Source: Mucilaginibacter saanensis
GTDB taxonomy: Bacteria; Bacteroidota; Bacteroidia; Sphingobacteriales; Sphingobacteriaceae
Assembly: GCF_014200575.1 (NCBI RefSeq)
Contig: NZ_JACHBZ010000005.1
Coordinates: 124,001-188,000 of the forward strand
DNA: 64,000 bases
Direction of reading: 5' to 3'
Each line of letters opens with the position of its first letter. Position 1 is the stretch's first letter. The translations under genes and the position numbers were made by a program. The notes beneath the pieces are model-generated. The model was not told the origin of the DNA. It saw nothing but the letters and a program-made list of their open reading frames with translations, and did no database searches. Positions 2 to 15,412 of the stretch are shown piece by piece.

Positions 2-1147
2 GATCTTGAAAATAAAAAGGTATTAGGTACAAATGAGGAAGCAAAACAAACGAATTTCAAAATTCTTGAAATCACAGTCGATCTTAATAGGCATTTCATA
101 CTATTAAGGGCTCAGTTTGAAAATGTCAAACCTTTAATGGTTAAAAATCTTTATCACGGGTTGTCTGCATTAGATAATAAATTCACTCCAACGAAAGAAT
201 TTAAACATATACCAACCTTACTACAGGTCGTCGACAAACACATTGCAAACTTTGAGGCCATGGTGAATAAGGGAATCAGATCAAATGAAACGCTTAAACA
301 ATGGAATGCGACCAGGAAAAAAATTAAAGAATTTTTAATTACAAAATTTGATTGTATCGATTGCAATTTAGCTGATATTGAGTATTCATTCGCAACAAGT
401 TTTTATAACTACTTAATAGTTGAAAGGAAAAACAACCTGAGTGAAGCAACAGCAAAGAAGCAAATCAAAAATTTAAAAGAGATATTAACCTTTGCGGAAA
501 CGAATACCTGGATCAGCAAAAATCCTATATTAAAGTTTAAATGTGGTAGTGATGAAACGGACATTCCTCCTCTCGAATACCATGAAGTAGAAAGGATTTG
601 GAGTAAAGAAATAACGGTTACTTCGATAGATGAAGTTAGGGATGCATTTATTTTTCAATGCTTTACCGGATTTGCATTTCAGGATGTCTACGCATTAGCA
701 ACTGAAAATATTGTCCGAATTGGTATAAAAGGAGAAAGATGGTTGATTAAAGATCGCGGGAAGACTGGTGTAAGTGAGATGGTTCCAATATTACCTATAA
801 TAGAAACTCTATTGGATAAGTATAAAAGCCATGCTTGTCGCGAAAATGGCTTACTCATCCCTGTAAATAATAATGCGAAATACAATTTCTATCTTAAAGA
901 GCTCGCCGTAATCTGCGGAATCAAGAGAGAGTTAAACACCCATTTGGCAAGGCATACCTTTGCAGATTTAATGCTTAATGTTTTCGGATTCTCTTTGGAG
1001 GAAGTAAGTAAAATGCTGGGACATAAAACTGTTAGAACTACACAGCGATATGCCAAAGTACGTAAAAACAAAATCAGCAAAACTTTGGCAAGAGTTAAGG
1101 GAATTGTGTTTGATAAAGATGGAAAATTGAGAAAAATCTCCATCTGA
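2..1147 (+). CDS. Tyrosine recombinase (integrase), 5' end outside window
   Basis: Site-specific recombinase that would integrate or excise a mobile island. The frame is open from base 2, so the gene starts left of the window; the first internal ATG is at 137 and residues are numbered from it. A SAM-like core-binding domain lies at about 28-125 and the catalytic domain at about 145-320. Visible catalytic residues are H269 and R272 (HLAR), H296 (LGH) and the nucleophile Y305 (TQRY). The first catalytic Arg, usually in TGLR, is replaced in TGFAF (177-181). That substitution is known in Bacteroidota recombinases of the IntDOT type, so the enzyme need not be dead. It lies at the edge of a defence-rich island, so it is the likely mobiliser. 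Confidence 0.9.
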   Translation, partial: DLENKKVLGTNEEAKQTNFKILEITVDLNRHFILLRAQFENVKPLMVKNLYHGLSALDNKFTPTKEFKHIPTLLQVVDKHIANFEAMVNKGIRSNETLKQWNATRKKIKEFLITKFDCIDCNLADIEYSFATSFYNYLIVERKNNLSEATAKKQIKNLKEILTFAETNTWISKNPILKFKCGSDETDIPPLEYHEVERIWSKEITVTSIDEVRDAFIFQCFTGFAFQDVYALATENIVRIGIKGERWLIKDRGKTGVSEMVPILPIIETLLDKYKSHACRENGLLIPVNNNAKYNFYLKELAVICGIKRELNTHLARHTFADLMLNVFGFSLEEVSKMLGHKTVRTTQRYAKVRKNKISKTLARVKGIVFDKDGKLRKISI

Positions 1148-3629: not shown

Positions 3630-4433
3630 ATGCAGTCCGCGTTCATAAAAGATACCGATCAAAAAGTTTATGCCTGGCACGCCGAGTTGGAGGGTGAGCG
3701 GTTTGTGTGTACCGGTTGCGCCGGGACCATGTTCCTTAAAAATGGCATGGTGCGTGTGGCACATTTCGCCCACGCGCCGGAAAGCCATTGCGCGTTTGCG
3801 CGGTATGAATCAGAACTGGAAGTAACGTATAAAGTATCAATTTACGAGGCATTGGTTGAGCGGTATGGGGCTAAAGGAAGGATTGATGTGGAACATACGG
3901 GAATCGCTGGCTGCAGACCGGCTGTATTCATCAATGGGCGTAAGCATCGAATAGCCATCGAGCTGTTGGTCGACGCCACAGACGTTCGCGAAATTATAAA
4001 CAAATCTGAAATTTATTTCGCGCTGAATGTCGGTGTGATCTGGGTATTGCCTTTTGATTCTGAACGTTTGAACGGCGACCGCTTAAAAATGAAAGAGCAT
4101 GAAAAACTCCTTTGTTTTATGAATAACAAGCGGCTTTTGTTCTGGCACCTTAGGCGCAAATCATTTTCTGTTGCAGAGTTTGGTGCTGCCTATGGTGAGA
4201 GTACTGAATTTTACGATAAAAACCAGGGCGATATGGTTTACTATGAAGGACGAAAACTGCGAAGTACCTTTAATATTACCAACCTGATCAACAATATTTA
4301 TCCTGAAGACCTGACACGCTGGGTATCTTCGAAACGTTTTGAAATGGAAACCTATAAATACCCGCTACCTAAATCTATTCTATGGAAATATCAGCCTCCC
4401 CCAAAAAACAGGCACCTTAAACGGCTTCGGTAA
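3630..4433 (+). CDS. CoiA-like protein (competence/nuclease-like)
   Basis: The N-terminus carries CTGCAGTMFLKNGMVRVAHF and then AHAPESHCAFARYESE, the Cys-pair plus HFAH...C...ESE pattern of the CoiA family, whose members combine a small zinc-binding-like module with a restriction-endonuclease-like core. The following RIAIELLVDATD segment (about residues 110-121) fits the acidic beta-strand of that core. ATG 3630 is chosen because the longer frame from 3561 would overlap the upstream gene by 59 bp and lacks family similarity. The 3' end overlaps the convergent ImmA gene by 17 bp. The family is known; its role here is inferred, and a DNA-processing function is likely. Confidence 0.6.
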   Translation: MQSAFIKDTDQKVYAWHAELEGERFVCTGCAGTMFLKNGMVRVAHFAHAPESHCAFARYESELEVTYKVSIYEALVERYGAKGRIDVEHTGIAGCRPAVFINGRKHRIAIELLVDATDVREIINKSEIYFALNVGVIWVLPFDSERLNGDRLKMKEHEKLLCFMNNKRLLFWHLRRKSFSVAEFGAAYGESTEFYDKNQGDMVYYEGRKLRSTFNITNLINNIYPEDLTRWVSSKRFEMETYKYPLPKSILWKYQPPPKNRHLKRLR

Positions 4434-5304
4434 AAACAAACCTCGTCCGTGACTTTATAGTTTCGCCCTGAGGAAATATGAGGACAAAACCATTGTATGT
4501 GTTATTAAAAAAATGATAAGTACAGTTTATGTAACCGTTGTCAGTTAAAATAGAAATCTCACTTTGCAAATCCCTGCGCCCATTAATATATTCTTGAACG
4601 AAAGTATAATCAACACCAAGTTCCGTATCCCATGTCAATGTGCCAAATTCTCGTGTGAAAGACGGAGACTGCAGACTATTCCGTAAAGTGATCTTAGGCC
4701 ATCCGAAACCAACCGGATTTTCTTTGTTCAAGATGAGTAATATACATCGCTTAGGGCTATGTTCGACGTACCGCCTGGCAGCTGCATGTACTGATGAACC
4801 AAAGTTTTTCGCGAGTGCCCGTGCCGAAGACATGCCTAAGGGCATGGTCAGCAATTGGTCACTGAACATTTCCTGCTGAAACAAAACAGCCGAGGCGAAA
4901 TAATTCGCCTCGGCCTCAAATAATTCATTTGTTTCCGGTGCAAGTGTCTCGTCATCATCGAGGCAATTGATCAACTTACCTTGCCAGTAGAGCAAGTCGT
5001 GTGCGGTTTCGTGCAGTTTTACAAAATTCTTCCGCTGCGTACTTTGTTCGTTATCCAATAAAATAATGCGATCGTTGCGCACGAGTACACCTCTCACTTT
5101 TGATACTGCCCTTTTTAAGACCAGTCCAAACTTTGCAAGATAATGCTCCGGTACCACGCTAAGGTCTACTTTCGAGTTTACACGTAAATCTGCATACTGC
5201 AATACCTTATCCACCGGGGTAGGGTACTGTCCGAGTGCACTGCTTTTTGTTAGCGCATCAAAAGCGATTTTATCAATGTCCTTTTTTTTCTGTTCACTTA
5301 GCAT
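4417..5304 (-). CDS. ImmA/IrrE-family zinc metallopeptidase
   Basis: A short-consensus zinc protease motif, HETAH, lies at residues 98-102, with a third ligand candidate in FEAEANYFA (about 129-137). This arrangement defines ImmA/IrrE proteins, which cleave or inactivate an XRE-type repressor after a damage or infection cue. The C-terminal 140 residues are an extra domain of unknown function (CILLILNKENPVGFGWPKI onward), perhaps the sensor. The gene overlaps the 3' end of the XRE repressor gene by 11 bp, so the two are translationally coupled. The pair is divergent from the ubiquitin-like operon and probably sets its expression. Confidence 0.87.
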   Translation of the reverse strand: MLSEQKKKDIDKIAFDALTKSSALGQYPTPVDKVLQYADLRVNSKVDLSVVPEHYLAKFGLVLKRAVSKVRGVLVRNDRIILLDNEQSTQRKNFVKLHETAHDLLYWQGKLINCLDDDETLAPETNELFEAEANYFASAVLFQQEMFSDQLLTMPLGMSSARALAKNFGSSVHAAARRYVEHSPKRCILLILNKENPVGFGWPKITLRNSLQSPSFTREFGTLTWDTELGVDYTFVQEYINGRRDLQSEISILTDNGYINCTYHFFNNTYNGFVLIFPQGETIKSRTRFVFTEAV

Positions 5305-5647
5305 CCTTTTGCTGGTATCTTAAAAATTTCAGGTAATCGATCAAAGCCTGCTCCTCTTCTTGGCTCAGGTTATCTGAAGAAAATGCGTAGTGAACATTTT
5401 TATTTCGTTGTTCGCTGGATTGCTCTATGATACCAGCCGAAACCATTAATTCATCGAAAGTGATATTATACAAATCGCCTAGTTTATACAAAGTATTAGC
5501 CGAGGGTTTTTTTATCTTATCATTTTCCAACTGGCTCAGGTAGGCATTGGAAATACCGCTTTTAACTTCCACTTCTCTGAGGGAAAGTTTTTTCAACTCT
5601 CGTGCCTCCCGCAGCATGCCGCCAAGTGTTTTTTCATTTTCCGCCAT
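5294..5647 (-). CDS. XRE-family HTH repressor
   Basis: The helix-turn-helix lies at about residues 10-62 (MLREARELKKLSLREVEVKS then GISNAYLSQLEND), with a helical, acidic C-terminal tail. I chose ATG 5647 (MAENEKT) rather than the ATG at 5656, because a good minus-strand -7 box (5661-5654) would otherwise lie inside the coding region; the transcript would then be nearly leaderless. It is paired with the ImmA-type protease. Four 18-bp TGCT-N10-AGCA operators upstream, and two more at 11,051-11,100, are its presumed targets. Repression relieved by the protease is an inference from known XRE/ImmA switches. Confidence 0.88.
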   Translation of the reverse strand: MAENEKTLGGMLREARELKKLSLREVEVKSGISNAYLSQLENDKIKKPSANTLYKLGDLYNITFDELMVSAGIIEQSSEQRNKNVHYAFSSDNLSQEEEQALIDYLKFLRYQQKDAK

Positions 5648-5686: not shown

Positions 5687-5799
5687 TGCTAAATGAAATT
5701 AGCACGATATCAAGCATCGCTAAAAATAATTAGCTTGATATTCAACAAGTTGCTAATTATATCAAGCAATATTAAATAAAGTGCTTGATATAATTAGCA
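5687..5799. promoter_or_regulatory. Four phased 18-bp operators (TGCT-N10-AGCA)
   Basis: Four sites share one architecture: 5687-5704 (TGCTAAATGAAATTAGCA), 5718-5735 (CGCTAAAAATAATTAGCT), 5751-5768 (TGCTAATTATATCAAGCA) and 5782-5799 (TGCTTGATATAATTAGCA). The last two are exact reverse complements of each other. Start-to-start spacings are 31, 33 and 31 bp, about three helical turns, so bound dimers would lie on one DNA face. The array spans the whole gap between the divergent XRE and ubiquitin-like operons, and its two ends touch both promoters. The same site occurs twice more at 11,051-11,100. Confidence 0.8.
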
Positions 5800-5815
5800 T
5801 CGCGTTCTATATTTG
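5785..5815 (+). promoter_or_regulatory. Promoter of the ubiquitin-like operon
   Basis: TATATTTG at 5808-5815 matches the -7 box TAnnTTTG, with TTG at 5785-5787 as the -33 element 20 bp upstream. The -33 lies inside the fourth operator (5782-5799), so repressor binding would exclude sigma factor. The predicted start is about 15 bp before ATG 5838. Confidence 0.6.
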
Positions 5816-5837
5816 ATAAAATTTTAGAACAATTAAT

Positions 5838-6515
5838 ATGAACAATCCAGAAAACGCTGGCCATGAGTCAGCCCAAAACAAACTTCCGCTCAGGATCGAG
5901 GGAAAAGAATTCCAGTGGGCGCACCAGTATATCACTGGTCTGCAAGTTAAAGAATTGATCGGCGCCGCAGCTGAGGTCAAAGTATTTCTGGCCATCGAAA
6001 AGCCTTGGGAAGATGAACATGTGGCTGACGATGACCGGGTGGATTTAGCCAGACCGGGTATCGAACAGTTTTACCTGAAGTACGTCTTATTCCTAACGAT
6101 CGAAGGTCGTAATTACGAATGGGGCAAGCAATACATTACCGGCAAAGAGCTTAGGGAGCTGGCCAATCTGGGTGCTGTGGGTGAGCTTTTTCTTTCGATT
6201 ACCAAGCCGTGGGAAGACGAATTAATCGGCGATGATACAAAAGTAGACTTAGCACGTCCCGGAATCGAGCATTTCTATCTTAAAGCGGCGCACGTACCAC
6301 CCAAAGTGACCATAATCGTTGACCACAATGACCGCGAAATCGAACCGGGCGAACGTGCCGTTGCCGAAATCAAAAAGGTAGGCATGGTTACCAAAGGTTA
6401 CGAATTGGACCAACTGATCAATGGTAGTTTGATACCATTAAAAGATGATGGTACGGTTTGCATTAAAGGTGGCGAAGAGTTTTTAAGCAGAGTTAAGGAC
6501 GGCACATCATCATAA
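5838..6515 (+). CDS. Polyubiquitin-like protein (multiubiquitin domain repeats)
   Basis: Three tandem ubiquitin-like modules make up the protein: residues 15-81, 82-149 and a divergent third at 154-220. The first two are close copies, each with an IEGKEFQW or IEGRNYEW strand, a YITG turn, KPWEDE, and VDLARPGIE followed by FYLK. This is the pattern of the bacterial multiubiquitin family, whose members are substrates of E1/E2/JAB cassettes. The third module contains GG at 211-212, followed by EEFLSRVKDGTSS. If GG is the conjugation site, the fused JAB domain two genes downstream could expose it by trimming. It is the first gene of the operon; the stop is 1 bp from the E2-like start. Confidence 0.88.
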   Translation: MNNPENAGHESAQNKLPLRIEGKEFQWAHQYITGLQVKELIGAAAEVKVFLAIEKPWEDEHVADDDRVDLARPGIEQFYLKYVLFLTIEGRNYEWGKQYITGKELRELANLGAVGELFLSITKPWEDELIGDDTKVDLARPGIEHFYLKAAHVPPKVTIIVDHNDREIEPGERAVAEIKKVGMVTKGYELDQLINGSLIPLKDDGTVCIKGGEEFLSRVKDGTSS

Positions 6516-6516
6516 T

Positions 6517-6855
6517 ATGGCATTCTCGGAACAAGAAATCCAGGAACTTAAGGAAATAGTCCCTTCGTTAAGCGCAGCTGACGAGGGCGGCTATACTTAT
6601 ATTCTCATGGAAAATCTAAAATTACCGGCAAATTGCAAACCCGCATTGGTTGATGCGCTTTTGTGCCCTATGTTGAAGGAGGGTTATCAGTCACGATTGT
6701 ATTTTTCCGAAAAGCCTGTAGGATGTAATACGACATTGAACTGGAACGCCAATGTCCGGATACTTGGCCGCACATGGTACGGTATCTCCTGGCAGACGCC
6801 AGCCGGGCTGAAATTAAAAGAAATGTTACTGGTCCACCTTAAAGCTTTTAGTTAA
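6517..6855 (+). CDS. E2-like ubiquitin-conjugating protein
   Basis: The short product fits the prokaryotic E2/UBC family E fold by size, by its place between a multiubiquitin gene and a JAB-E1 gene, and by the closing segment GRTWYGISWQTPAGLKLKEM (84-103), which resembles the conserved Trp-containing tail of that family. Three cysteines are present (C40, C50, C70); I cannot tell which, if any, would carry the thioester, and the classical HPN motif is absent. Its last base is the first base of the next gene (TAATG), indicating tight coupling. The role, passing an adenylated ubiquitin-like tail to a target, is inferred from the cassette. Confidence 0.7.
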   Translation: MAFSEQEIQELKEIVPSLSAADEGGYTYILMENLKLPANCKPALVDALLCPMLKEGYQSRLYFSEKPVGCNTTLNWNANVRILGRTWYGISWQTPAGLKLKEMLLVHLKAFS

Positions 6856-8183
6856 TGAAAACACCTAAATTACATGTCAAAATATCATCCGCATTATACG
6901 AAAGAATGTTAAGCGATCTGAAGCGGCCGCATGAGTTTGCCAGCGAAAGGGCAGGTTTTATCTATACTACCCACAAAACTATCAACGGAGATATTTACGT
7001 GTGGATCAATTCTTACCACCCGTTAAACGAAGCACACTATATAGATGATCCGTCAGTAGGTGTACGGTTCAGCGGGGCGGCAATCCGTGATGCCATGGAA
7101 CACGTTTTAAGGGGTCAATTCGGTAGCCTTTATGTACATCTTCATGATCATAAAGGTATGCCCTTGCCGAGTAGTACGGATATAAAGAGTATACCTGGTG
7201 TTGTACAAAGTTTGGTTAACGCAACCCCAAAAGAAACACATGGCTTCCTGATACTCAGTAAAAATGCTTTCTATTTAAAAATGCGGGTGCCAGGCAGTAA
7301 AAACTTTATAGAGACATCCAGTATTTCCGTAGTAGGGAAACCGATGTTATTTCAATACGCCCAACGTAAAGGCAAAATAATTAATGATAGGTATAGCCGC
7401 CAGTCATTTTTAGGGCCCGATTCGGAATACCTGTTCAGTAAGGTCCGTGTAGGGGTCGTTGGGCTTGGCGGAGGCGGTTCTCACGTTTCGCAACAACTCG
7501 CTCATATAGGTATACTTAATCCGCTGATTTTTGATGGCGACCGAGTAGAATTATCTAACCTAAACAGGTTAATTGGAGCCTGGTTTACCGATGTGGTTCG
7601 AAAAACATCGAAGACGCGTGTCGCCCGCCGTTTAATTAAAAAATTACTGCCTAAAGCAAACGTGCTATGTTTCGACGGCAGGTGGCAGGATTATGCTGAA
7701 GCGTTACAAACCTGTGATATTATAATTGGCTGTGTGGACGATTTTGCTTCCCGCGCTGAGTTGGAAGCGGAGTGCCGTAGATATTTGATACCTTATATTG
7801 ACATAGGCATGGATGTACATCGTGCGCATCAGCATACTGCTATGTCGGGCCAGATTATCACATCGGTACCGGGTATGCCCTGCATGCGCTGTATGCAATA
7901 TATTACTGAAGAAAAATTGGCAACTGAAGCCGCCAAATATGGTGATGTCGGTATACGGCCGCAAGTGGTTTGGCCAAATGGTGTGCTGGCATCGACAGCG
8001 GTTGGTATGGTGATGGAATTGATTACTGGTTGGACGATGCAGGCTGCGGAAAACATTTATCTTGCCTATGATGGCAATAAAGGAACCGTAACAACACATC
8101 ACCGGCTGAATTATTTGAAGGTAAATTGCTGCCCGCACTATCCAGATGATCAAACTGGACGTCCTGGTTATAAGACATTGTAA
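6855..8183 (+). CDS. JAB metalloprotease-E1 (ThiF-type) fusion
   Basis: Two enzymes in one chain. Residues 1-165 form a JAB/MPN-like deubiquitinase domain with E31 (ASERAGF), HLHDH at 95-99 and a downstream SSTD (106-109), i.e. the Glu, His-x-His and Asp needed for the JAMM zinc site, although the His-to-Ser spacing is slightly unusual. Residues 185-442 form an E1-like adenylating domain: glycine-rich loop GLGGGGSH (203-210), FDGDRVELSNLNR (226-238), acidic CVDD (293-296), and cysteine pairs C343/C346 and C425/C426 that probably bind zinc or act as catalytic Cys. It would mature, activate and remove the ubiquitin-like protein made by the first gene. Confidence 0.9.
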   Translation: MKTPKLHVKISSALYERMLSDLKRPHEFASERAGFIYTTHKTINGDIYVWINSYHPLNEAHYIDDPSVGVRFSGAAIRDAMEHVLRGQFGSLYVHLHDHKGMPLPSSTDIKSIPGVVQSLVNATPKETHGFLILSKNAFYLKMRVPGSKNFIETSSISVVGKPMLFQYAQRKGKIINDRYSRQSFLGPDSEYLFSKVRVGVVGLGGGGSHVSQQLAHIGILNPLIFDGDRVELSNLNRLIGAWFTDVVRKTSKTRVARRLIKKLLPKANVLCFDGRWQDYAEALQTCDIIIGCVDDFASRAELEAECRRYLIPYIDIGMDVHRAHQHTAMSGQIITSVPGMPCMRCMQYITEEKLATEAAKYGDVGIRPQVVWPNGVLASTAVGMVMELITGWTMQAAENIYLAYDGNKGTVTTHHRLNYLKVNCCPHYPDDQTGRPGYKTL

Positions 8184-8243
8184 GTAATTTGTTTTACTTA
8201 AAAAATTGCTTATCCTTGTTTACTTATAAACCTGTTTACATAC

Positions 8244-8708
8244 ATGCGCTTGATTGGTATTCGCGTGAACCCTCACAAGGTTCTGTATTCCATTGTTGAA
8301 GATAATAATGATAGCTATGAAGTTATAAATCAGGAGCTTATCATACCAGTTTCCTTTAATCTACCACAAAAGCTGAAGTATATCCGCAAAACATTTCTGG
8401 ACATTTTAAATGAATATGTCGTATTGCGTGCTGGAATAAAATTAACCGAGTATTCTGGTTATCAAAGTCCTGATGTGAACCGAGTAATGATTGAGGGGGT
8501 AATTTTAGAAATGTTAGCCAGCAGCAAAGTTGAACGGTATTTTGCTGGTACCAAAGTATCTATTGCAGCCAGCTTGGGACTTGCTGCTGATGGAACCATT
8601 ACGCGTATTATAGATGGGCACGAGACATATGCTGGCATTGCTGACTGGCCCACAATCAGTAAGGAACACCGCGAATGTATTATGACCGCATTGGCTACAA
8701 ATACTTAA
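8244..8708 (+). CDS. Uncharacterised operon protein (possible RNase H/RuvC-like fold)
   Basis: The 154-residue product has no signal or membrane segment. Its opening beta-strand (MRLIGIRVNPHKVLYSIVED), a central strand (EYVVLRAGIKLTEY), a helix with VMIEGVILEMLA and a final helix (KEHRECIMTALA) give the order of an RNase H-like fold. The acidic residue expected after the first strand is not evident, so nuclease activity is doubtful. This is a fold guess only. The gene follows the JAB-E1 fusion by 60 bp and ends 2 bp before the likely kinase start, so it belongs to the same transcript. It is the least understood member of the cassette. Confidence 0.55.
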   Translation: MRLIGIRVNPHKVLYSIVEDNNDSYEVINQELIIPVSFNLPQKLKYIRKTFLDILNEYVVLRAGIKLTEYSGYQSPDVNRVMIEGVILEMLASSKVERYFAGTKVSIAASLGLAADGTITRIIDGHETYAGIADWPTISKEHRECIMTALATNT

Positions 8709-8710
8709 AC

Positions 8711-9772
8711 ATGCTCGACTATACCAACACCAGCCTGCACTTTAAAAAATTGATGGACATTACGGAACAGGGTAAAAATTCTGAAGTTTTTCGTGCACAT
8801 GATTATCAATTGGACGCTGTTATAGTCGTCAAAAAAATCAAGAAGTCAGATTTAAACGGCCCGGAGCATTTTTTCAAAGAAGCCAAGATGCTCTATGCAT
8901 CCTCTCATGACAATATTGTGCCGATACAATATGCTTGTCAGGATGAAGATCATATTTACATCAGCATGCCGGATTATGAGCGTGGCTCATTGAATAAGCT
9001 TATTTCCGAACGTTTTTTGACCCCTCGCGAAATCATACGTTACGGCATTGACTTCTTAAGTGGCTTGCACCATATCCATGCCAAAGGTTTAATTCACTGT
9101 GATGTTAAAGCAAATAATATTCTGATATCAGCATCGGATGACGCAACTTTAACAGACTTTGGGTTGGCAAAATATTTGAATTTACACGGTTTCGCTGTAG
9201 CAGATGAATTTTATTATCTCACCCAGGCTCCTGAAAATTTTCAGGCTGAAGAGGTTACCCATCAAACTGATATTTATCAAGCTGGACTTACGCTTTACAG
9301 CATGTGTAATGGTAACGAGGAGTTGAAAAGACAATTGAAGCCGTTTCTTATTGGTGGATTGTTTAACGAGGACTTATTCAAAAAAGCCGTATTAAAAGGG
9401 AAATTTCCAGAACGCACGCAATATCCACCCCACATTCCACAAAAGCTAAAAAACTACATTCGTAAAGCTTTAGAGCCCGACCCTTCTAAACGTTACGAAT
9501 CTGTATTAGACCTGCTTAATGATCTTGCTGGAATAGATATTCCCTACGACTGGCAATTTTTACCCGAAAAGGACCGTTATAAATGGAGTTGCGAAAATGA
9601 CGGAAAAACTTATGTTACAGAAGTCACATTTATAGATGATAAACACGCTGGCATTTCAGTCACTAAAACATTAAATAAAACGCAACAGATTAACGCATAT
9701 TTCCGTAAAAAAGTAACGCATGATGAGGCGTTTACGCTTGCTAAGCAAGCGCTTAATAATAAGGATTTATAA
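8711..9772 (+). CDS. Eukaryotic-type Ser/Thr protein kinase
   Basis: From ATG 8711 (2 bp after the previous stop; an earlier start at 8675 would overlap that gene), the 353-residue product shows a complete kinase core: the lysine in VIVVKKIKK (K41), helix-C Glu in FFKEAKML (E57), catalytic loop HCDVKANNIL (D131), DFG (149-151) and an APE segment (173-175). The HRD arginine is replaced by Cys, which often means no activation-loop phosphorylation requirement. Residues beyond about 270 form a small C-terminal domain with beta-strands (YKWSCENDGKTYVTEVTFID). No membrane anchor is present. It is in the ubiquitin-like operon, suggesting signalling or effector control by phosphorylation. Confidence 0.87.
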   Translation: MLDYTNTSLHFKKLMDITEQGKNSEVFRAHDYQLDAVIVVKKIKKSDLNGPEHFFKEAKMLYASSHDNIVPIQYACQDEDHIYISMPDYERGSLNKLISERFLTPREIIRYGIDFLSGLHHIHAKGLIHCDVKANNILISASDDATLTDFGLAKYLNLHGFAVADEFYYLTQAPENFQAEEVTHQTDIYQAGLTLYSMCNGNEELKRQLKPFLIGGLFNEDLFKKAVLKGKFPERTQYPPHIPQKLKNYIRKALEPDPSKRYESVLDLLNDLAGIDIPYDWQFLPEKDRYKWSCENDGKTYVTEVTFIDDKHAGISVTKTLNKTQQINAYFRKKVTHDEAFTLAKQALNNKDL

Positions 9773-9780
9773 TCTGAACT

Positions 9781-9954
9781 ATGAAGCATCAGCCGAATAA
9801 ATCAAATAATCTATTTGCTAGAAACACTTCCGAAGGCAGGGTGAGCGGACAGGCTTATAGTTATTATCTTAAAAGATCTCATGAAGCAGGTTTCGACCAA
9901 AAGTTTGAACGAACGCCTCCAAAAAACGGCTATATTAAATTGAAAAAGAAGTAA
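9781..9954 (+). CDS. Small basic protein (57 aa) at operon end
   Basis: An ATG 8 bp after the kinase stop opens a 57-residue frame (MKHQPNKSNNLFARNTSEGR ... GYIKLKKK). It is rich in Lys, Asn, Ser and Tyr with a very basic tail. I recognise no family. Its spacing and strand fit the operon, and it stops 3 bp before the convergent membrane-protein gene ends, so it is bounded neatly on both sides. It could be a substrate, adaptor or nucleic-acid binder; that is not decidable here. Confidence 0.55.
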   Translation: MKHQPNKSNNLFARNTSEGRVSGQAYSYYLKRSHEAGFDQKFERTPPKNGYIKLKKK

Positions 9955-9957
9955 TGG

Positions 9958-10821
9958 TTAGCCTACGGGTACCAACGTAGTGGTAACATTCCCTGCAGCA
10001 TCCGTTACTGTCTGGACATCGATGTAGGTTACATTTACATTCGAAATTTTGCTACCCGGAATTGTAAAATATTTCCCTGGAATTACAATCATGTCACCGC
10101 TATCATTGTCATAGGATGTGATTTTTATACCGCTCCCGGCTACTTCGGTTACTTGGCTATTTTTTCTTAAATCTCTTCTTCTTGCTGCACTAATTGTGAT
10201 ATAAGTCAATTCGTTTTTATCGGGGCTAATATCAAATTTTTCGAGAATGCCCGAATAGATCACCGTAGCCTCCTTGGTTTCTGAAACTACATCTACGAGC
10301 ACGAGATCTACATTTTTACGTTTGTCCGTATCAAGCAACAGGCCTGTAAATAAACGTAAATACATATTTTCTCCAACCAACCACAAATTCAATGAAGGAA
10401 TCCAAATAAAACATTGGGTGACCAAAAGACCCAATAAAAAACCAGCTAACGTTTCCCACAAAACATATTTCAAGAATGAGGTTAGTTCCACGTTAAATAC
10501 TGCATTATTCTGTATGACGTCTTTTTGACTGGAAAAAATATTAAGTAATAACTGGAAATCGATTTCATAACCAAACCGGTCTATTAAGCAAACTGAAAGC
10601 AGATGCTGCATTAATGGTATGATGGAGAAAAAAAACAGCGTTTCAGAGAAATTAAGCTTAGAAAGAAGATTGATAAAGTTTCTACGTGCAAGTTCTCCAG
10701 GGAATGAGGAAGAAGCTTTGTCTCCTTTATTGGAATATCTTCGACAAACAACTCCAATCCGAAAAAAAAAAGCAGGAAGCAATAGCAAAAGGATAATAAG
10801 TGCTCCTAAGGCTATATTCAT
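9958..10821 (-). CDS. Membrane protein with cytoplasmic beta-rich tail
   Basis: Three hydrophobic segments are visible, at about residues 4-22, 58-78 and 113-136, followed by a soluble tail of 150 residues rich in beta-strands (VDLVLVDVVSETKEATVIYS, then YITISAARRRDL). The organisation resembles uncharacterised bacterial membrane proteins found in accessory regions; I assign no function. The gene converges on the ubiquitin-like operon and lies 15 bp downstream of a 59-residue gene on the same strand. Two copies of the repressor operator precede that pair. A membrane effector controlled with the conjugation cassette is a reasonable inference. Confidence 0.72.
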   Translation of the reverse strand: MNIALGALIILLLLLPAFFFRIGVVCRRYSNKGDKASSSFPGELARRNFINLLSKLNFSETLFFFSIIPLMQHLLSVCLIDRFGYEIDFQLLLNIFSSQKDVIQNNAVFNVELTSFLKYVLWETLAGFLLGLLVTQCFIWIPSLNLWLVGENMYLRLFTGLLLDTDKRKNVDLVLVDVVSETKEATVIYSGILEKFDISPDKNELTYITISAARRRDLRKNSQVTEVAGSGIKITSYDNDSGDMIVIPGKYFTIPGSKISNVNVTYIDVQTVTDAAGNVTTTLVPVG

Positions 10822-10836
10822 TACAATAAAAAAAAA

Positions 10837-11016
10837 TTAACGTTTACCAGTTTCTGATACAGAATGGTCTTGAGCGGACGGAGTAGCAGAACCCTTAGCA
10901 TGGTGTGGATCAGATACAACATACCCCATTTGCTCATAAAAATCATTCAGCAAATCGTTCGATTTCTTAGTGTCCTCGACAATCTGATAGCCCTCAAAAG
11001 TCATTATTGGTTCCAT
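10837..11016 (-). CDS. Small acidic/polar protein (59 aa) before membrane gene
   Basis: An ATG at 11,016 opens a 59-codon frame: MEPIMTFEGYQIVEDTKKSN then DLLNDFYEQMGYVVSDPHHA, ending in a polar tail. It has no recognised family. A -7 box (CAAATATA on the plus strand, 11,035-11,042) lies 18 bp upstream and the downstream membrane gene starts 15 bp later, so the two form a short operon. It was too short for routine gene calling, but the promoter, operators and spacing support it. Confidence 0.6.
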   Translation of the reverse strand: MEPIMTFEGYQIVEDTKKSNDLLNDFYEQMGYVVSDPHHAKGSATPSAQDHSVSETGKR

Positions 11017-11034
11017 GTCGCTTCAATTAATAAT

Positions 11035-11100
11035 CAAATATAATAAGATTTGCTAAATATACCAAGCAAAAATCTAAACTTTTGTTTGATAAATTTAGCA
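11035..11100 (-). promoter_or_regulatory. Promoter with two more TGCT-N10-AGCA operators
   Basis: Operators at 11,051-11,068 (TGCTAAATATACCAAGCA) and 11,083-11,100 (TGTTTGATAAATTTAGCA) are 32 bp apart and match the four sites at 5687-5799. On the minus strand TATATTTG (11,042-11,035) fits the -7 box, and TTG (11,065-11,063) fits the -33, which is buried in the first operator. The minus-strand small gene and membrane gene should therefore respond to the same XRE repressor as the ubiquitin-like operon. Confidence 0.72.
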
Positions 11101-11206: not shown

Positions 11207-11488
11207 ATGATAGCAGCAAGTTATGATTCTGTAGAAAAAGAAATTGTTAATTCAATTGATGAGGTTAAGAATGTCTTTAGGTTAAAGGCAGCCTTTGATG
11301 CGGATTCTTGTCCCGGTACCATGCTAACGAGTCAAGTGTTAGTTACGGTGATTGCAAGAATTGCAAAAAAACTTGGAGTAATACTCCCAAATGGGTGTTA
11401 TATCTTTTATGACAAGAAAACCAAAAGACAACTTTCGATTAAAGAAGGAACCGAAAAATTCATAAAGGAAGCACAAAATGGAAAATAA
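11207..11488 (+). CDS. Small protein, weak acyl-carrier-like resemblance
   Basis: The 93-residue product is mostly helical. The segment MLTSQVLVTVIARIAKKLGV (about 39-58) followed by a turn with ILPNG has the rhythm of acyl carrier protein helix II, where a Ser in DSL carries phosphopantetheine; here Ser41 would be in that place, but the Asp is Thr. This is a loose similarity and may be chance. A holo-ACP-synthase-like gene at the other end of the cluster makes the idea worth testing. The gene overlaps the XRE gene by 11 bp and is first in its operon. Confidence 0.5.
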   Translation: MIAASYDSVEKEIVNSIDEVKNVFRLKAAFDADSCPGTMLTSQVLVTVIARIAKKLGVILPNGCYIFYDKKTKRQLSIKEGTEKFIKEAQNGK

Positions 11489-11819
11489 TAATAATTTATC
11501 CGATCGCGAGAAGATTGCCGGCCGATTAAAAGAGGCCAGGTTGTTGTCTGGTTTATCACAGGCTCAGGCGGCAGATAAACTTGGACTCCTTAGACCTGCT
11601 ATTACGGAAATCGAGGCTGGGAAGAGAAAAGTAAGCGCTGAAGAGATAATTCAATTCGCTGAGATATACAAGGTAGACACTTCGTGGCTTTTACTTCGAG
11701 AAGAAGAGGACGATTCTTATATGAATCAGCAGATAAAGGTCGCGGCACGCGAACTCGGAAAGATGAAACCGGAAGACATGAAAAAGCTATTACACGTTTT
11801 AAAAATCCTTCCGAAATAA
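11478..11819 (+). CDS. XRE-family HTH regulator (second)
   Basis: A canonical HTH occupies about residues 13-68: IAGRLKEARLLSGLSQAQAA, then DKLGLLRPAITEIEAGKRKV. The C-terminal 40 residues are helical. It overlaps the preceding small gene by 11 bp and ends 4 bp before an ImmA-type gene, so the three are coupled. By analogy with known XRE/ImmA switches it probably represses this operon through the palindrome at 11,164-11,184. It is unlike the repressor at 5294-5647 in sequence. Confidence 0.87.
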   Translation: MENNNNLSDREKIAGRLKEARLLSGLSQAQAADKLGLLRPAITEIEAGKRKVSAEEIIQFAEIYKVDTSWLLLREEEDDSYMNQQIKVAARELGKMKPEDMKKLLHVLKILPK

Positions 11820-11823
11820 ATTG

Positions 11824-12693
11824 ATGAACGCAATCTATGAAAAGGCCATTCTCGCAGCAGATGAGGTGCGGATGCAAATAGGAGCTAGTATCTATGAGCC
11901 AGTAAACATATTTGATATATGCGACGAATTGGGCTTAAATGTTTTATTCGTTGACATAAGTATGGAAGGACTGTACGTGAAACAGGAAGGCGGCTCCAAG
12001 AATGCTATTCTCATATCTTGCCAACGGCCCTTTCCACGGAGAGTTTTTACCTGCGCCCACGAATTGGGCCATCATAGCTTTTCACATGGCTTAAAAATAG
12101 ATATTTTAGAAAAAAGTCCGGATCCAACAGAAAAACGCGATATAGACGAATACCTGGTAGACTTATTTGCCGGGAGTCTTTTAATGCCAATAGCCGGTTT
12201 ACAAGCCGAAGCAGCTATTAGGAATTTGTCATGGAGGAGAATAACACCGCTGAGTTTATATAAATTATGTTCTGTGTTTGGCACGGGTTATACAACTTTG
12301 ATTACGCATGCGCGCGCTAATAATCTGATAGATGATGTGACTGCTGCGTCGTTGGACAAGTATGGCCCAGCAAAAATTCTTAGCGACATCTTTGGCTCGG
12401 ATACAAAAAAAGCCTATTTTAAAATCATTGATGAACACGCTCAGTTAAAGGTCATAGATTTAGAGGTTGGCAATTACCTCGTGCTACCGCAGCATATTGA
12501 GATAGAAGGCGATCATTTACAAAAATTTAAAAATACGGCTGTAGGCGTGGGTTATACCGCAGTCAAGCCAGGAATAGTTAGAGCGGCATCACGTGATGGG
12601 AATTTTGCTACCTTTATTCGTATCCAACGTTACCGGTATGCTGGCTTAGCGAAATACCGACATTTAGAAACCCCTGTAGAAGAAATTTCATGA
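11824..12693 (+). CDS. ImmA/IrrE-family metallopeptidase (second)
   Basis: CAHELGHHSFSHG (about residues 78-90) holds the HExxH zinc site, and YLVDLFAGSLLMP about 30 residues on provides the Asp/Glu-containing third-ligand helix. The order, an N-terminal ImmA domain then a long C-terminal region ending in a basic RIQRYRYAGLAKYRHL, differs from the first ImmA protein. ATG 11,824 is preferred over an in-frame TTG at 11,821. The final 4 bp overlap the thymidylate-synthase-like gene (ATGA), so protease and enzymes are on one transcript. It is expected to relieve repression by the XRE protein upstream. Confidence 0.87.
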   Translation: MNAIYEKAILAADEVRMQIGASIYEPVNIFDICDELGLNVLFVDISMEGLYVKQEGGSKNAILISCQRPFPRRVFTCAHELGHHSFSHGLKIDILEKSPDPTEKRDIDEYLVDLFAGSLLMPIAGLQAEAAIRNLSWRRITPLSLYKLCSVFGTGYTTLITHARANNLIDDVTAASLDKYGPAKILSDIFGSDTKKAYFKIIDEHAQLKVIDLEVGNYLVLPQHIEIEGDHLQKFKNTAVGVGYTAVKPGIVRAASRDGNFATFIRIQRYRYAGLAKYRHLETPVEEIS

Positions 12694-13436
12694 GAAACGT
12701 ACCCGTATTAATTGAGGATGATAACATATCTTCGGCTTGGTGTAAAGTTGTTGGATACATTTTAAACCATCCCGGCAAAGAGATCACACCTTTAATCTTG
12801 TCCTTAACCGGGTTTGATGAGAAAGAGGCGGTAAGGGACGCCCTTGATGCCGACTTAGCCAAACGTGAAGAATTTTCCATCACGACAGTATCTGAAACCA
12901 TTTTTCCGGAGTCCGTTTATATTTTATGCGGAGAGGACCGGGAAGCCCTGTACAATCAGTACATGGAGAATTTACCAAGATTGAAAGCGATTGACAAGCG
13001 AAATAAGCGTGGTATTTACTTTGAGCGCCTAATAGCATTTGAAAACCCGCGAAAACCTGCCATGCCGGTAAACCAACTCGATGTTATTATTAACGGTCTT
13101 AAAAATGAAAAGGGGAAACGTCGTTCCGCCCTTCAGGCCTCCCTGTTTGACCCAGGGGTTGATCATATGAATTCACCTTACCTCGGCTTTCCTTGTTTAC
13201 AACAGATCTCCTGTTATAAATCTGAGAATGGTGGTTTGATATTGAATGCCTTTTATGCTGTGCAACTATTGCATCGCAAAGCTTATGGTAACTGGTTGGG
13301 GCTTACCAACTTAGGTAAGTTTATCGCGAAAGAAGCAGGAATTGCTTTTGAGCGTTTCAATTGCTACGTAGGTGTAGAACAATTAGATGGCCTCACCAAA
13401 GCGGACGCAAAACGATTTATTGCATTGGATGTATAG
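12690..13436 (+). CDS. Thymidylate-synthase-like (nucleotide hydroxymethylase-type) protein
   Basis: The product follows the thymidylate synthase fold family: phosphate-binding RRSALQASLFDP (144-155), an active-site-like GFPCLQ (166-171) with Cys169, and NAFYAVQLLHRKAYGNWLGL (186-205) corresponding to the nucleotide-binding helix. It is shorter than ThyA, and these motifs are those of divergent members found with DNA-base modification genes, where a dUMP or dCMP hydroxymethylation is the model reaction. It is not the housekeeping enzyme. It lies between an ImmA gene (4-bp overlap) and the hydroxymethyl-dU kinase homologue, and these two neighbours support a base-modification role. Confidence 0.75.
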   Translation: MRNVPVLIEDDNISSAWCKVVGYILNHPGKEITPLILSLTGFDEKEAVRDALDADLAKREEFSITTVSETIFPESVYILCGEDREALYNQYMENLPRLKAIDKRNKRGIYFERLIAFENPRKPAMPVNQLDVIINGLKNEKGKRRSALQASLFDPGVDHMNSPYLGFPCLQQISCYKSENGGLILNAFYAVQLLHRKAYGNWLGLTNLGKFIAKEAGIAFERFNCYVGVEQLDGLTKADAKRFIALDV

Positions 13437-13471
13437 TTTCGGTCTAATAAAATCTAATTTTGACCACTCAT

Positions 13472-14518
13472 ATGAAACCAAGTTTAGCTATAGAAAATAA
13501 TATTTTGCCTGACAAATTAGATATCATTCATCAACACCTATTACCTGCCAAAATCACGAAAGTTTTTGATACTTACTGGCGATTTGCTGTTTTACGTCAG
13601 GAAGCTTTCTTTAACCGGGTTAATGAACACGAACAACCCTGGTCTGAAGATCCGATTTTAAAACATTATAAGTTTACCAATGCATATCGTGCGGCTGACC
13701 GGGTTAGCCAGTACCTGATCAAAAATGTGATCTACGCTGCAGATCTTCCTAATACGCCGGAAGAGGTTTTTTTCAGGATAATGTTATTCAAACTTTTTAA
13801 TAAGATTGAAACCTGGGAACTGCTTAATGCAGAATTTGGTGAAATGGTCTTAGCCAATTATAATTTTAAAAAGTTTGATGAATTACTTAAGCAAACTATG
13901 GCAAGTGGCGAAACGATTTACTCCGCGGCCTATATCATGCCATCAGGTAAATCATTCTTTGGAATGGCTAAAAAACACAGCAATCATTTGAAATTGATTG
14001 AATTAATGTTGAAAAAGGAAACCCATAAGCAACTGATGGATGCCAAGACCATGGAGAGAGCATTTGAGATTATCAAAAGTTTCCCGGGACTCGGCGATTT
14101 CTTAGCCTATCAATTATTAATTGATATCAATTATTCTACCATAACGAACTTTTCAGAATCTGAGTTCGTGGTAGCCGGTCCAGGTGCGAAAGGCGGCATA
14201 AGCAAATGCTTTTCAGATACCGGAGGGTTGAGCGCTGTTGAGATTATAAAACTGATGACTGACCGGCAAGAACGCGAATTTGAACGCCTTGGTTTGGTTT
14301 TTCCAACTCTTTGGAGCCGTCCTCTTCAACTTATTGATTGTCAAAACTTGTTTTGCGAAGTTGATAAGTACTCCAGGGTAAAACATCCGGATATTAAAGG
14401 TAGCAGCGACCGTACCAGGATTAAACAAATCTTTAAACCGACTTACGAACCGATTGATTATTGGTTTCCTCCCAAATGGGGTATCAACCAAAATATTAAC
14501 AATACCGTAAATTTGTAA
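13472..14518 (+). CDS. 5-hmdU DNA kinase helical-domain / aGPT-pyrophosphorylase homologue
   Basis: The sequence matches a family first seen in phages with hypermodified thymine (alpha-glutamyl/putrescinyl-thymine pyrophosphorylase; 5-hydroxymethyl-deoxyuridine DNA kinase helical domain). Family-typical segments are YWRFAVLRQEAFFNR, PILKHYKFTNAYRAADRVSQ followed by YLIKNVIY, KLFNKIETWELL, YSAAYIMPSG, EFVVAGPGAKGGI and RPLQLIDCQNLFCEVDKYSR. At 348 residues from ATG 13,472 it covers the whole helical domain but no separate P-loop kinase domain is evident. A TTG 12 bp earlier is a less likely start. Known phage members act on hmdU in DNA; the bacterial substrate is unknown. Confidence 0.8.
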   Translation: MKPSLAIENNILPDKLDIIHQHLLPAKITKVFDTYWRFAVLRQEAFFNRVNEHEQPWSEDPILKHYKFTNAYRAADRVSQYLIKNVIYAADLPNTPEEVFFRIMLFKLFNKIETWELLNAEFGEMVLANYNFKKFDELLKQTMASGETIYSAAYIMPSGKSFFGMAKKHSNHLKLIELMLKKETHKQLMDAKTMERAFEIIKSFPGLGDFLAYQLLIDINYSTITNFSESEFVVAGPGAKGGISKCFSDTGGLSAVEIIKLMTDRQEREFERLGLVFPTLWSRPLQLIDCQNLFCEVDKYSRVKHPDIKGSSDRTRIKQIFKPTYEPIDYWFPPKWGINQNINNTVNL

Positions 14519-14521
14519 TAT

Positions 14522-15412
14522 ATGGAATTGAATGAATATCAAAAAAAAGCATTAGAGACCGATCTCAACCCTAACACCCGTGAAGGTTTAATGATCAGTT
14601 TACTGGGTGTAGCAGGTGAAGCAGGTGAGTTGCTTAGTATTTATAAAAAACATCTTCGGGATGGAGATTCCTATACCGCATTCAATAAAGCTGTCGTGGA
14701 GGAGCTCGGTGATGTGCTTTGGTATCTTACCAATATTGCCTCAAAATTCGGCATATCACTCGAAGATATTGCCAATAGCAATCTTTCGAAAACTCGCAAA
14801 AGATGGGTAGGAGAGCCAAAAGAACTTCAAGGATTGATCAGTTTTGATGAACAATTGCCCCTGAGCCAACAGTGGCCAAGTAAACTTGATTTCTCTATAC
14901 GCGAGAAGTCTGGCGGACCGTTCGCTGCCGTTGTTACCTATCACAATGAAATACCTGTAGGGGACCCTTTAACTGATAACTCTTATACGGATGACGGATA
15001 CCGCTATCATGATGTATTTCACATGTCCTACCTCGCTGTTTTGGGGTGGTCTCCTGTGTTGAGAAAAAACCTCAGTAGAAAGAGAAAAAGCAATCAAAAA
15101 ATAGATGAAGTGGAGGACGGGGGAAGAGCTGCGGTCATTGAAGAAGGCATAGCGGCATTAATCTATGGGGTTGCTCGCGACCACAATTGGTTTGAAAAAA
15201 TCAACCATGTAGATGGTGACCTGTTAAAAACCATAAAGAAAATGACAGCACATCTGGAAGTAAACGATCGGACGGAAAAACAATGGGAACAAGCTATATT
15301 ACAAGGATTTAAAGTATGGCGCAAATTTCAGCACTTTAAAGAGGGAACAGTTATCATTGATATGGACAAATCAACTTTGAGTTTTGAACCCTTCGGCAAC
15401 GACAAAAGCTAA
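14522..15412 (+). CDS. MazG-like nucleotide pyrophosphohydrolase, extended
   Basis: Residues 8-100 are a MazG-type NTP pyrophosphohydrolase: GVAGEAGELLSIYKK and VVEELGDVLWYLTNIASKFG supply the E-x2-E and E-x2-D metal-binding helices. Residues 140-285 form a second all-alpha unit (DDGYRYHDVFHMSYLAVLGW; AAVIEEGIAALIYGVARDHN) that again has paired acidic helices and may be a second, diverged MazG module. Such enzymes hydrolyse dNTPs to dNMPs, which in modification systems removes a canonical nucleotide from the pool. The start is 3 bp after the previous stop, so it is operonic with the thymidylate-synthase-like and hmdU-kinase-like genes. Confidence 0.85.
   Translation: MELNEYQKKALETDLNPNTREGLMISLLGVAGEAGELLSIYKKHLRDGDSYTAFNKAVVEELGDVLWYLTNIASKFGISLEDIANSNLSKTRKRWVGEPKELQGLISFDEQLPLSQQWPSKLDFSIREKSGGPFAAVVTYHNEIPVGDPLTDNSYTDDGYRYHDVFHMSYLAVLGWSPVLRKNLSRKRKSNQKIDEVEDGGRAAVIEEGIAALIYGVARDHNWFEKINHVDGDLLKTIKKMTAHLEVNDRTEKQWEQAILQGFKVWRKFQHFKEGTVIIDMDKSTLSFEPFGNDKS

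What the first reader, a model, noticed from the sequence alone, without database searches (positions are those of the whole stretch)
5687..11100. Six copies of one 18-bp operator tie two convergent operons to one repressor
TGCT-N10-AGCA sites occur at 5687, 5718, 5751 and 5782, spaced 31, 33 and 31 bp, and again at 11,051 and 11,083, spaced 32 bp. In both places they overlap or abut -33/-7 elements (sequence). The first group serves the XRE/ImmA and ubiquitin-like promoters, the second the promoter of a 59-residue protein and a membrane protein on the opposite strand. The two operons meet tail to tail at 9954-9958. So the membrane protein is likely a co-regulated part of the same system, with the XRE protein at 5294-5647 as the repressor (inference).
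Basis: partly seen in the sequence, partly recalled or inferred. Interest (0 to 1): 0.85.

Follow-up and report, generated by a model that had tools for sequence, protein, structure and literature searches.

The report
CapH operators link two defence operons
In a soil-type bacterium, one probably DNA-damage-sensitive repressor appears to hold down both a bacterial ubiquitin-like operon and a separate, facing two-gene membrane-protein operon, so that both would switch on together.

Summary
The six sites are at the stated places and far beyond chance, but only four fit TGCT-N10-AGCA exactly; 5718 and 11083 are variants, and that loose pattern is not specific (136 places in the 6.24 Mb genome). 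The full site is specific: a matrix trained only on capH-bubA intergenic sites ranks exactly these six on top, and operator plus Bacteroidetes -7 element occurs at just two places in the genome, the bubA and p59/membrane-protein promoters, and at the same two in relative G285.

The XRE/ImmA pair is CapH+CapP-like. The main operon is Bub-type (multi-ubiquitin, E2-like, JAB-E1) plus a RuvC-fold protein, a kinase and a 57-residue protein. The second operon, a small protein plus a membrane protein with an Sm-like domain, is a two-gene unit found elsewhere without Bub; M. robiniae keeps it without an operator there. It seems to have been captured into the CapH regulon. CapH+CapP at Bub operons is published; the detached second promoter is the new part. 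Binding, cleavage, trigger and function are inferred.

The parts
4417..5304 (-). CapP-type ImmA/IrrE (M78) metallopeptidase, 295 aa
   Evidence: Pfam PF06114 1.4e-12; PADLOC capP 1.7e-21; HExxH (HETAH) conserved
5294..5647 (-). CapH-type XRE repressor, 117 aa
   Evidence: Pfam HTH_3 1.7e-13; PADLOC capH 6.2e-10, HTH_VI 6.2e-11; HTH stretch GISNAYLSQLENDKIKKPSAN identical in the 4 orthologues aligned
5687..5704 (.). operator 1 (TGCTAAATGAAATTAGCA), next to the capH promoter
   Evidence: conserved in G285
5718..5735 (.). operator 2, degenerate (CGCTAAAAATAATTAGCT)
   Evidence: in G285 AGTTAAAAATAATTAGCT
5751..5768 (.). operator 3 (TGCTAATTATATCAAGCA)
5782..5799 (.). operator 4 (TGCTTGATATAATTAGCA), contains the TTG of the bubA promoter -33 region
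5808..5815 (+). -7 element TATATTTG of the bubA promoter
   Evidence: consensus from PMC7366714, PMC6847099 (passages)
5838..6515 (+). BubA-type multi-ubiquitin protein, 225 aa
   Evidence: Pfam Multi_ubiq 4.3e-25, 2 stretches; PDB multi-ubiquitin/BilA chains, best 3.1e-7
6517..6855 (+). E2-like protein, 112 aa
   Evidence: position; Prok-E2_E only 0.079 in 1 of 7 orthologues; no PDB match
6855..8183 (+). JAB + E1 (ThiF) protein, BubCD-like, 442 aa
   Evidence: ThiF 2.8e-31; best PDB match Citrobacter BubCD 5.2e-18; E31, H95, H97, S106, D109 invariant in 7 of 7
8244..8708 (+). RuvC-fold protein, 154 aa; Arg where RuvC's first catalytic Asp would be (position from recall)
   Evidence: model pLDDT 92; RuvC chains top Foldseek, E 4.8e-8; R7 invariant in 12 of 12
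8711..9772 (+). Ser/Thr protein kinase, 353 aa
   Evidence: Pfam Pkinase 1e-38
9781..9954 (+). 57-aa protein, last gene of the Bub operon
   Evidence: 52% identical orthologue in G285; no family match
9958..10821 (-). membrane protein, 287 aa: helical N-terminal half (three hydrophobic helices by eye) + Sm/LSm-like C-terminal domain
10837..11016 (-). 59-aa protein, first gene of the second operon
   Evidence: orthologues in G285 and G195; a small ORF lies upstream in 16 of 16 loci of the membrane family examined
11035..11042 (-). -7 element TATATTTG of the p59 promoter
11051..11068 (.). operator 5 (TGCTAAATATACCAAGCA), contains the TTG of the p59 promoter -33 region
   Evidence: conserved in G285 at L012:9677
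11083..11100 (.). operator 6 (TGTTTGATAAATTTAGCA), 32 bp further upstream of p59
   Evidence: conserved in G285 at L012:9709

Best explanation
One CapH-type repressor controls three promoters at this locus: its own (capH-capP), that of a Bub-type ubiquitin-like conjugation operon, and, 5 kb away on the opposite strand, that of a two-gene unit encoding a 59-residue protein and a membrane protein with an Sm-like domain. CapH dimers bind 18-bp palindromes TGCTwRwTATAwYwAGCA set about three helical turns apart (31-33 bp), covering the -33 region so that RNA polymerase cannot start. When CapP is activated (by single-stranded DNA, as published for other CapH+CapP pairs) it cuts CapH and all three units come on together. 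Shown here: the sites, their specificity, their geometry and their conservation. Inferred: binding by CapH, cleavage by CapP, the trigger, and that the membrane protein works in the same response.
For: A matrix trained without the 11 kb sites finds them. The composite operator-promoter hits exactly two places in G000 and the same two in G285, one in G336 (bubA), none in G195; the reversed-pattern control gives no hit in the first three and one strand hit in G195. The same TTG-N20-TATATTTG geometry is at both promoters in both species. Operators are better conserved than the rest between G000 and G285: 65/72 vs 89/124 (capH-bubA) and 33/36 vs 60/85 (p59). Array spacing recurs: 31/33/31 (G000, G285), 31/32/31 (G171), 32/31 (three sites, G336). 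A strict operator scan of 399 genomes gave 11 places in 8 genomes; 7 places in 4 genomes are capH-multiubiquitin loci, one of them (G171) found by the operator alone. CapP relatives at E <= 1e-40: 7 of 387 genomes, all 7 beside capH and a multi-ubiquitin gene. Published: 219 of 544 Bub operons carry CapW or CapH+CapP (PMC13373217, section 7 read).
Against: No binding or expression data. 4 of the 11 strict-operator places (G195, G046, G322, G211) have no CapH, CapP or multi-ubiquitin relative in the 16.0-16.5 kb fetched. Sites are weak in Runella and G176 and nearly absent in G091 and G342 although CapH is there; no null was run for the four-mismatch scan. Operators are not better kept than the rest in the alignments with G336 (45/72 vs 65/124, with a deleted segment) or G195 (19/36 vs 35/85, no operator there) to any useful degree. 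In G285 the CapP gene is cut short after HETGH, so protease control may be lost there. The matrix includes four of the window's own sites.
Confidence: 0.8

Rival explanations
1. The sites at 11051/11083 belong to the second XRE protein (11478-11819), encoded nearby with its own ImmA-type partner, and not to CapH.
For: XRE2 is nearer (HTH_3 1.6e-13, M78 partner 7.1e-8); the first ORF of its presumed operon (11207) starts about 106 bp beyond the 11083 site.
Against: The sites match the matrix built from capH-bubA sites. G285 keeps both sites at its p59 promoter but has no XRE2 match (E <= 0.01) in its 19-kb locus; there the ORF on that side (L012:9740-10357, minus) ends at the sites, so p59 is the only neighbouring gene served. 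The capH loci of G171 and Runella also have no XRE2 match; the only match in all fetched loci outside the window's own genome is a weak one in Niabella (E 0.002).
Confidence: 0.06
2. The sites are bound by a general chromosomal regulator, and their presence at both operons says nothing about a private regulon.
For: The loose motif occurs 136 times in the genome; the degenerate motif with up to one mismatch occurs at 43 places, 5 of them the sites here.
Against: Only 5 exact degenerate-motif places in the genome, 3 of them here. Of the 38 other places I read five: four lie inside long ORFs and one is intergenic. The composite pattern is found at 2 places only.
Confidence: 0.05
3. The second operon is co-regulated but does not act in the Bub response: it is a bystander two-gene unit that came under CapH by recombination, or a protective (immunity) partner.
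For: The unit occurs without Bub: 11 of 399 family genomes carry a relative of the membrane protein (E <= 1e-3) against 3 of 399 with this E1 (E <= 1e-30). In 14 loci with distant relatives, plus G195, tblastn of the fetched stretches found no CapH, CapP or Bub relative. G195's p59 promoter has no operator.
Against: The operator pair at p59 is kept in two species with 33/36 identity inside the sites against 60/85 outside, which suggests selection for co-expression. Contig lengths suggest a further species with E1, RuvC-fold and membrane genes on one 400,633-bp contig.
Confidence: 0.35

Closest known systems
CapH+CapP control of CBASS and Bub operons (Lau et al. 2022, as cited in PMC13373217; the original not seen)
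   Same: Divergent HTH repressor with a metallopeptidase gene, sites over the promoter of the neighbouring operon; Bub operons are a published target class
   Different: Here the same operator also sits at a second, detached promoter 5 kb away on the other strand, and the upstream array has four sites at about three-turn spacing
Bub (bacterial ubiquitination-like) operons; Citrobacter BubCD (PDB 9ea4)
   Same: Multi-ubiquitin protein, E2-like protein, JAB-E1 protein in that order
   Different: Carries a RuvC-fold protein, Ser/Thr kinase and a 57-aa protein, and has a co-regulated convergent membrane-protein operon. The two Bub papers are not held, so whether these additions are already listed is unknown
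CapK+CapS (PMC13373217; section 7 and passages seen)
   Same: Palindromic repressor sites at two promoters, released by DNA damage
   Different: Kinase-repressor pair, not HTH-protease; the two promoters lie between capK and capS and just downstream of capS, not at a detached convergent operon
Sm/LSm proteins (e.g. PDB 4emh, 1i4k)
   Same: Predicted fold of residues about 150-268 of the membrane protein
   Different: Fused behind hydrophobic helices; no sequence family match, RNA binding unknown

Membership tests
CapH+CapP regulator pair | HTH repressor gene next to, and divergent from, the regulated operon | tested here: met
   HTH_3 1.7e-13, PADLOC capH 6.2e-10 (HTH_VI scores slightly better, 6.2e-11); 5294-5647 (-) faces 5838 (+)
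CapH+CapP regulator pair | Adjacent zinc metallopeptidase with HExxH | tested here: met
   M78 1.4e-12, PADLOC capP 1.7e-21; H98, E99, H102 invariant in 4 of 4
CapH+CapP regulator pair | Repressor sites in the target promoter | tested here: met
   Sequence level only: sites overlap the -33 region at bubA and p59; binding not tested
CapH+CapP regulator pair | ssDNA-activated cleavage of CapH by CapP | not testable with these tools
   needs biochemistry
Bub operon | Multi-ubiquitin protein (BubA) | tested here: met
   Pfam Multi_ubiq 4.3e-25
Bub operon | E2-like protein | tested here: inconclusive
   Prok-E2_E E 0.079 in 1 of 7 members, none for the window's own; no PDB match; gene order fits
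Bub operon | E1 and JAB-type protease | tested here: met
   ThiF 2.8e-31; Citrobacter BubCD best PDB match 5.2e-18; E-HxH-S-D set (motif recalled) invariant in 7 of 7; no JAB family was hit by the Pfam scan
Bub operon | Conjugation activity / phage defence | not testable with these tools
   PMC13373217 itself says Bub has not been shown to protect against phage (passage)
Sm/LSm fold (membrane protein C-terminal domain) | Sm-type beta barrel | tested here: met

The most novel reading that the evidence does not exclude
The p59-membrane operon is the effector arm of a DNA-damage-triggered Bub response: a ring-forming, membrane-anchored Sm-fold protein (hydrophobic helices plus an Sm barrel, in plan like the membrane-plus-beta-domain part of MscS channels, a resemblance from memory) held inactive by its small partner and released together with the ubiquitin-like conjugation machinery, so that conjugation and membrane action are coupled by one repressor at two separate promoters.
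Probability: 0.18. Interest if true: 0.75.

Novelty: new variant of a known kind. Interest (0 to 1): 0.5.

Why it matters
It suggests that CapH+CapP control need not stop at the adjacent operon: a separate unit can be wired in by placing two operators at its promoter. That gives a way to look for missing effectors of ubiquitin-like systems by their operators and not by adjacency, and it puts forward a two-gene membrane module (small protein plus Sm-fold membrane protein), for which no Pfam family was hit and which occurs in several families of the class, as a candidate.

Tried and rejected
Rejected: (1) the loose TGCT-N10-AGCA motif as a regulon marker (136 places). (2) XRE2 as the owner of the 11 kb sites (no match at the G285 locus). 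(3) A third promoter in the regulon beyond capH's own: the degenerate motif with 0-1 mismatch gave 43 places, 38 besides the sites here; I read five of the 38 (4 intragenic, 1 intergenic single site), and the composite pattern gave no further place. (4) The membrane protein as a general Bub component: no match to it in the fetched stretches at Runella, Niabella, B1, Bacteroidales, G171, G381, G176, G091 and G342; G336's contig is too short to tell. (5) A Pfam family for the membrane protein (28 members scanned, none passing a cut-off). (6) Virus contigs: one E1 relative, no membrane-protein relative.

Limits of the counts: of 18 genomes other than G000 with a membrane-protein relative (10, 8) large stretches were fetched for 16; G113 and G620 were not. 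L053 (G653) was left out of the small-ORF count because its ORF was not set. The E1 protein search listed the best 120 of 3838, so contig-length matches further down were not seen.

Led nowhere: E1 search in the small family of G599 (0 of 13); two literature searches that returned mostly unrelated work. The two primary Bub papers are not held, so novelty of the accessory genes within Bub operons could not be checked. MscS was not among the rows shown.
Full report
WHAT IS THERE. Between the divergent genes at 5294-5647 (-) and 5838-6515 (+) lie four 18-bp palindromes (5687, 5718, 5751, 5782), and upstream of the minus-strand gene 10837-11016 lie two more (11051, 11083). Four fit TGCT-N10-AGCA exactly; 5718 and 11083 are variants. 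Consensus from the six: TGCTwRwTATAwYwAGCA.

IS IT MORE THAN CHANCE. The loose pattern is common: 136 places in the 6,242,960-base genome. The degenerate pattern TGCTWRWWNNWWYWAGCA has 5 exact places, 3 of them here, and 43 with up to one mismatch, 5 of them here. A matrix trained on ten capH-bubA intergenic sites (window, G285, G336) and not on the 11 kb sites ranks the six first in the window, 18.7-25.0 bits, next 12.6. 400 shuffles gave 5 hits >=18.6 in all, no pair within 60 bp; of 40 earlier shuffles the best single score was 18.0. The composite pattern TGCTW-N8-WAGCA-N7-9-TANNTTTG was searched in four whole genomes: 2 places in G000 (bubA, p59), 2 in G285 (the same), 1 in G336 (bubA), 0 in G195; reversed control none in the first three and one strand hit in G195.

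GEOMETRY. At bubA and at p59, in G000 and in G285, the promoter reads TTG-N20-TATATTTG with the TTG inside the operator; G336 has N19. TTTG/TAnnTTTG is the Bacteroidetes consensus (PMC7366714 and PMC6847099, passages). Sites follow each other at 31/33/31 bp (G000, G285), 31/32/31 (G171) and 32/31 (three sites, G336), and the p59 pair at 32 bp in both species, i.e. about three helical turns. Between G000 and G285 operators are better conserved than the rest: 65/72 against 89/124, and 33/36 against 60/85. Against G336 (45/72 vs 65/124, one segment missing there) and G195 (19/36 vs 35/85, no operator there) there is no clear excess.

WHO BINDS. The 117-aa XRE protein is CapH-like and the overlapping peptidase CapP-like. 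The stretch GISNAYLSQLENDKIKKPSAN is identical in the window, G285, Runella and Niabella and, read, in G171 and G176; G381 differs by one residue, and G091 and G342, whose promoters have diverged sites, read NEK for NDK within it. A strict operator scan of 399 family genomes gave 11 places in 8 genomes: 7 places in G000 (3), G285 (2), G336 (1) and G171 (1) are capH-multiubiquitin loci; 4 places in G195, G046, G322 and G211 are single sites with no CapH, CapP or multi-ubiquitin relative in the fetched 16.0-16.5 kb (G322 has a weak E1-like match, E 9e-5). G171 was found by the operator alone; its E1 is only 23% identical over the matched part, so the sites go with CapH and not with the E1. A CapP search of 387 family genomes (E <= 1e-40) gave 7, all 7 beside capH and a multi-ubiquitin gene. 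With the matrix, sites of 15 bits or more lie beside capH in G336, G171, G381 and Niabella as well as G000 and G285; G176's best there is 12.1; Runella, G091 and G342 have none at the cut-offs used there. With up to four mismatches to the consensus (a loose test without a null), Runella has two, G342 one, G091 none. B1 and a Bacteroidales contig have the operon but no CapH match and no high-scoring site (best 12.2 and 11.3 bits in the whole stretch); the Bacteroidales contig holds only 158 bases upstream of its ubiquitin-like ORF.

THE MAIN OPERON. Multi_ubiq protein, 112-aa E2-like protein, JAB-E1 protein whose best solved relative is Citrobacter BubCD, then a RuvC-fold protein (model pLDDT 92; RuvC chains from E 4.8e-8) with Arg at the first catalytic position (position judged from recall of RuvC), a Ser/Thr kinase and a 57-aa protein. 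It is therefore a Bub-type operon with accessory genes. PMC13373217 (section 7 read, other passages seen) reports CapW or CapH+CapP at 219 of 544 Bub operons and that Bub has not been shown to protect against phage.

HOW IT WORKS (inference from here on). CapH sits on the arrays and shuts capH-capP, bub and p59-membrane. DNA damage activates CapP, CapH is cut, and the three units come on together. Probability that CapH represses both promoters: about 0.8; that DNA damage through CapP is the trigger: about 0.65; that the membrane protein acts in the same response: about 0.6; that it is a membrane effector held by p59: about 0.2.

NOVELTY. CapH+CapP at Bub operons is known. A private second promoter on the opposite strand, with conserved operators and identical promoter geometry, is a new variant in what I could read; the primary Bub papers were not available, so this is not a claim that nobody has seen it.

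Noticed in passing
L012:3548-3904 (G285): The CapP gene is cut short right after HETGH, overlapping a TetR-like ORF (by eye) on the other strand, while capH and all operators are kept; the repressor may be unreleasable there.
   Followed up: partly
L025:8720-8850, L026:8700-8835, L084:11050-11160, L085:8620-8735 (-): A similar GC-rich non-coding element (hairpin GCCCAATC..GATTGGGC, then a stretch around GGCGACT) just upstream of the multi-ubiquitin gene in four loci where no capH operator lies directly at that gene; no Rfam family; 4 of 10 predicted pairs show changes on both sides in 4 sequences.
   Followed up: partly
window 11478-15412: A second XRE + ImmA pair followed by a 248-aa protein, a 5-hmdU DNA kinase helical-domain protein (PF18723, 6e-111) and a MazG_C protein (PF18722, 6e-73): a neighbouring, apparently separate gene cluster.
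   Followed up: no
L025:8443-8718: In Niabella the capH operators face a DUF2188 (PF09954, 4.6e-22) gene and not the multi-ubiquitin gene directly.
   Followed up: no
L026:6312-8678 and L070:4728-6929: Large proteins that read like subtilisin-type proteases (by eye) lie beside the multi-ubiquitin operon in B1 and beside CapP in G171.
   Followed up: no
window 8244-8708: The RuvC-fold protein has only 12 hits in the protein search, its own included, and Arg where RuvC has its first catalytic Asp (recalled), so it may not be a nuclease.
   Followed up: partly
L058:3945-5663: A Rhizobium leguminosarum plasmid shows the same HTH + ImmA/IrrE pair divergent from a multiubiquitin gene, followed downstream by PD-(D/E)XK nuclease and UvrD genes.
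   Followed up: no
window 137-1147 and 3636-4433: Tyrosine recombinase and a CoiA-like protein lie to the left of the locus; in G285 a serine-recombinase-like ORF (by eye) lies at L012:10539-12014, suggesting mobile surroundings.
   Followed up: no
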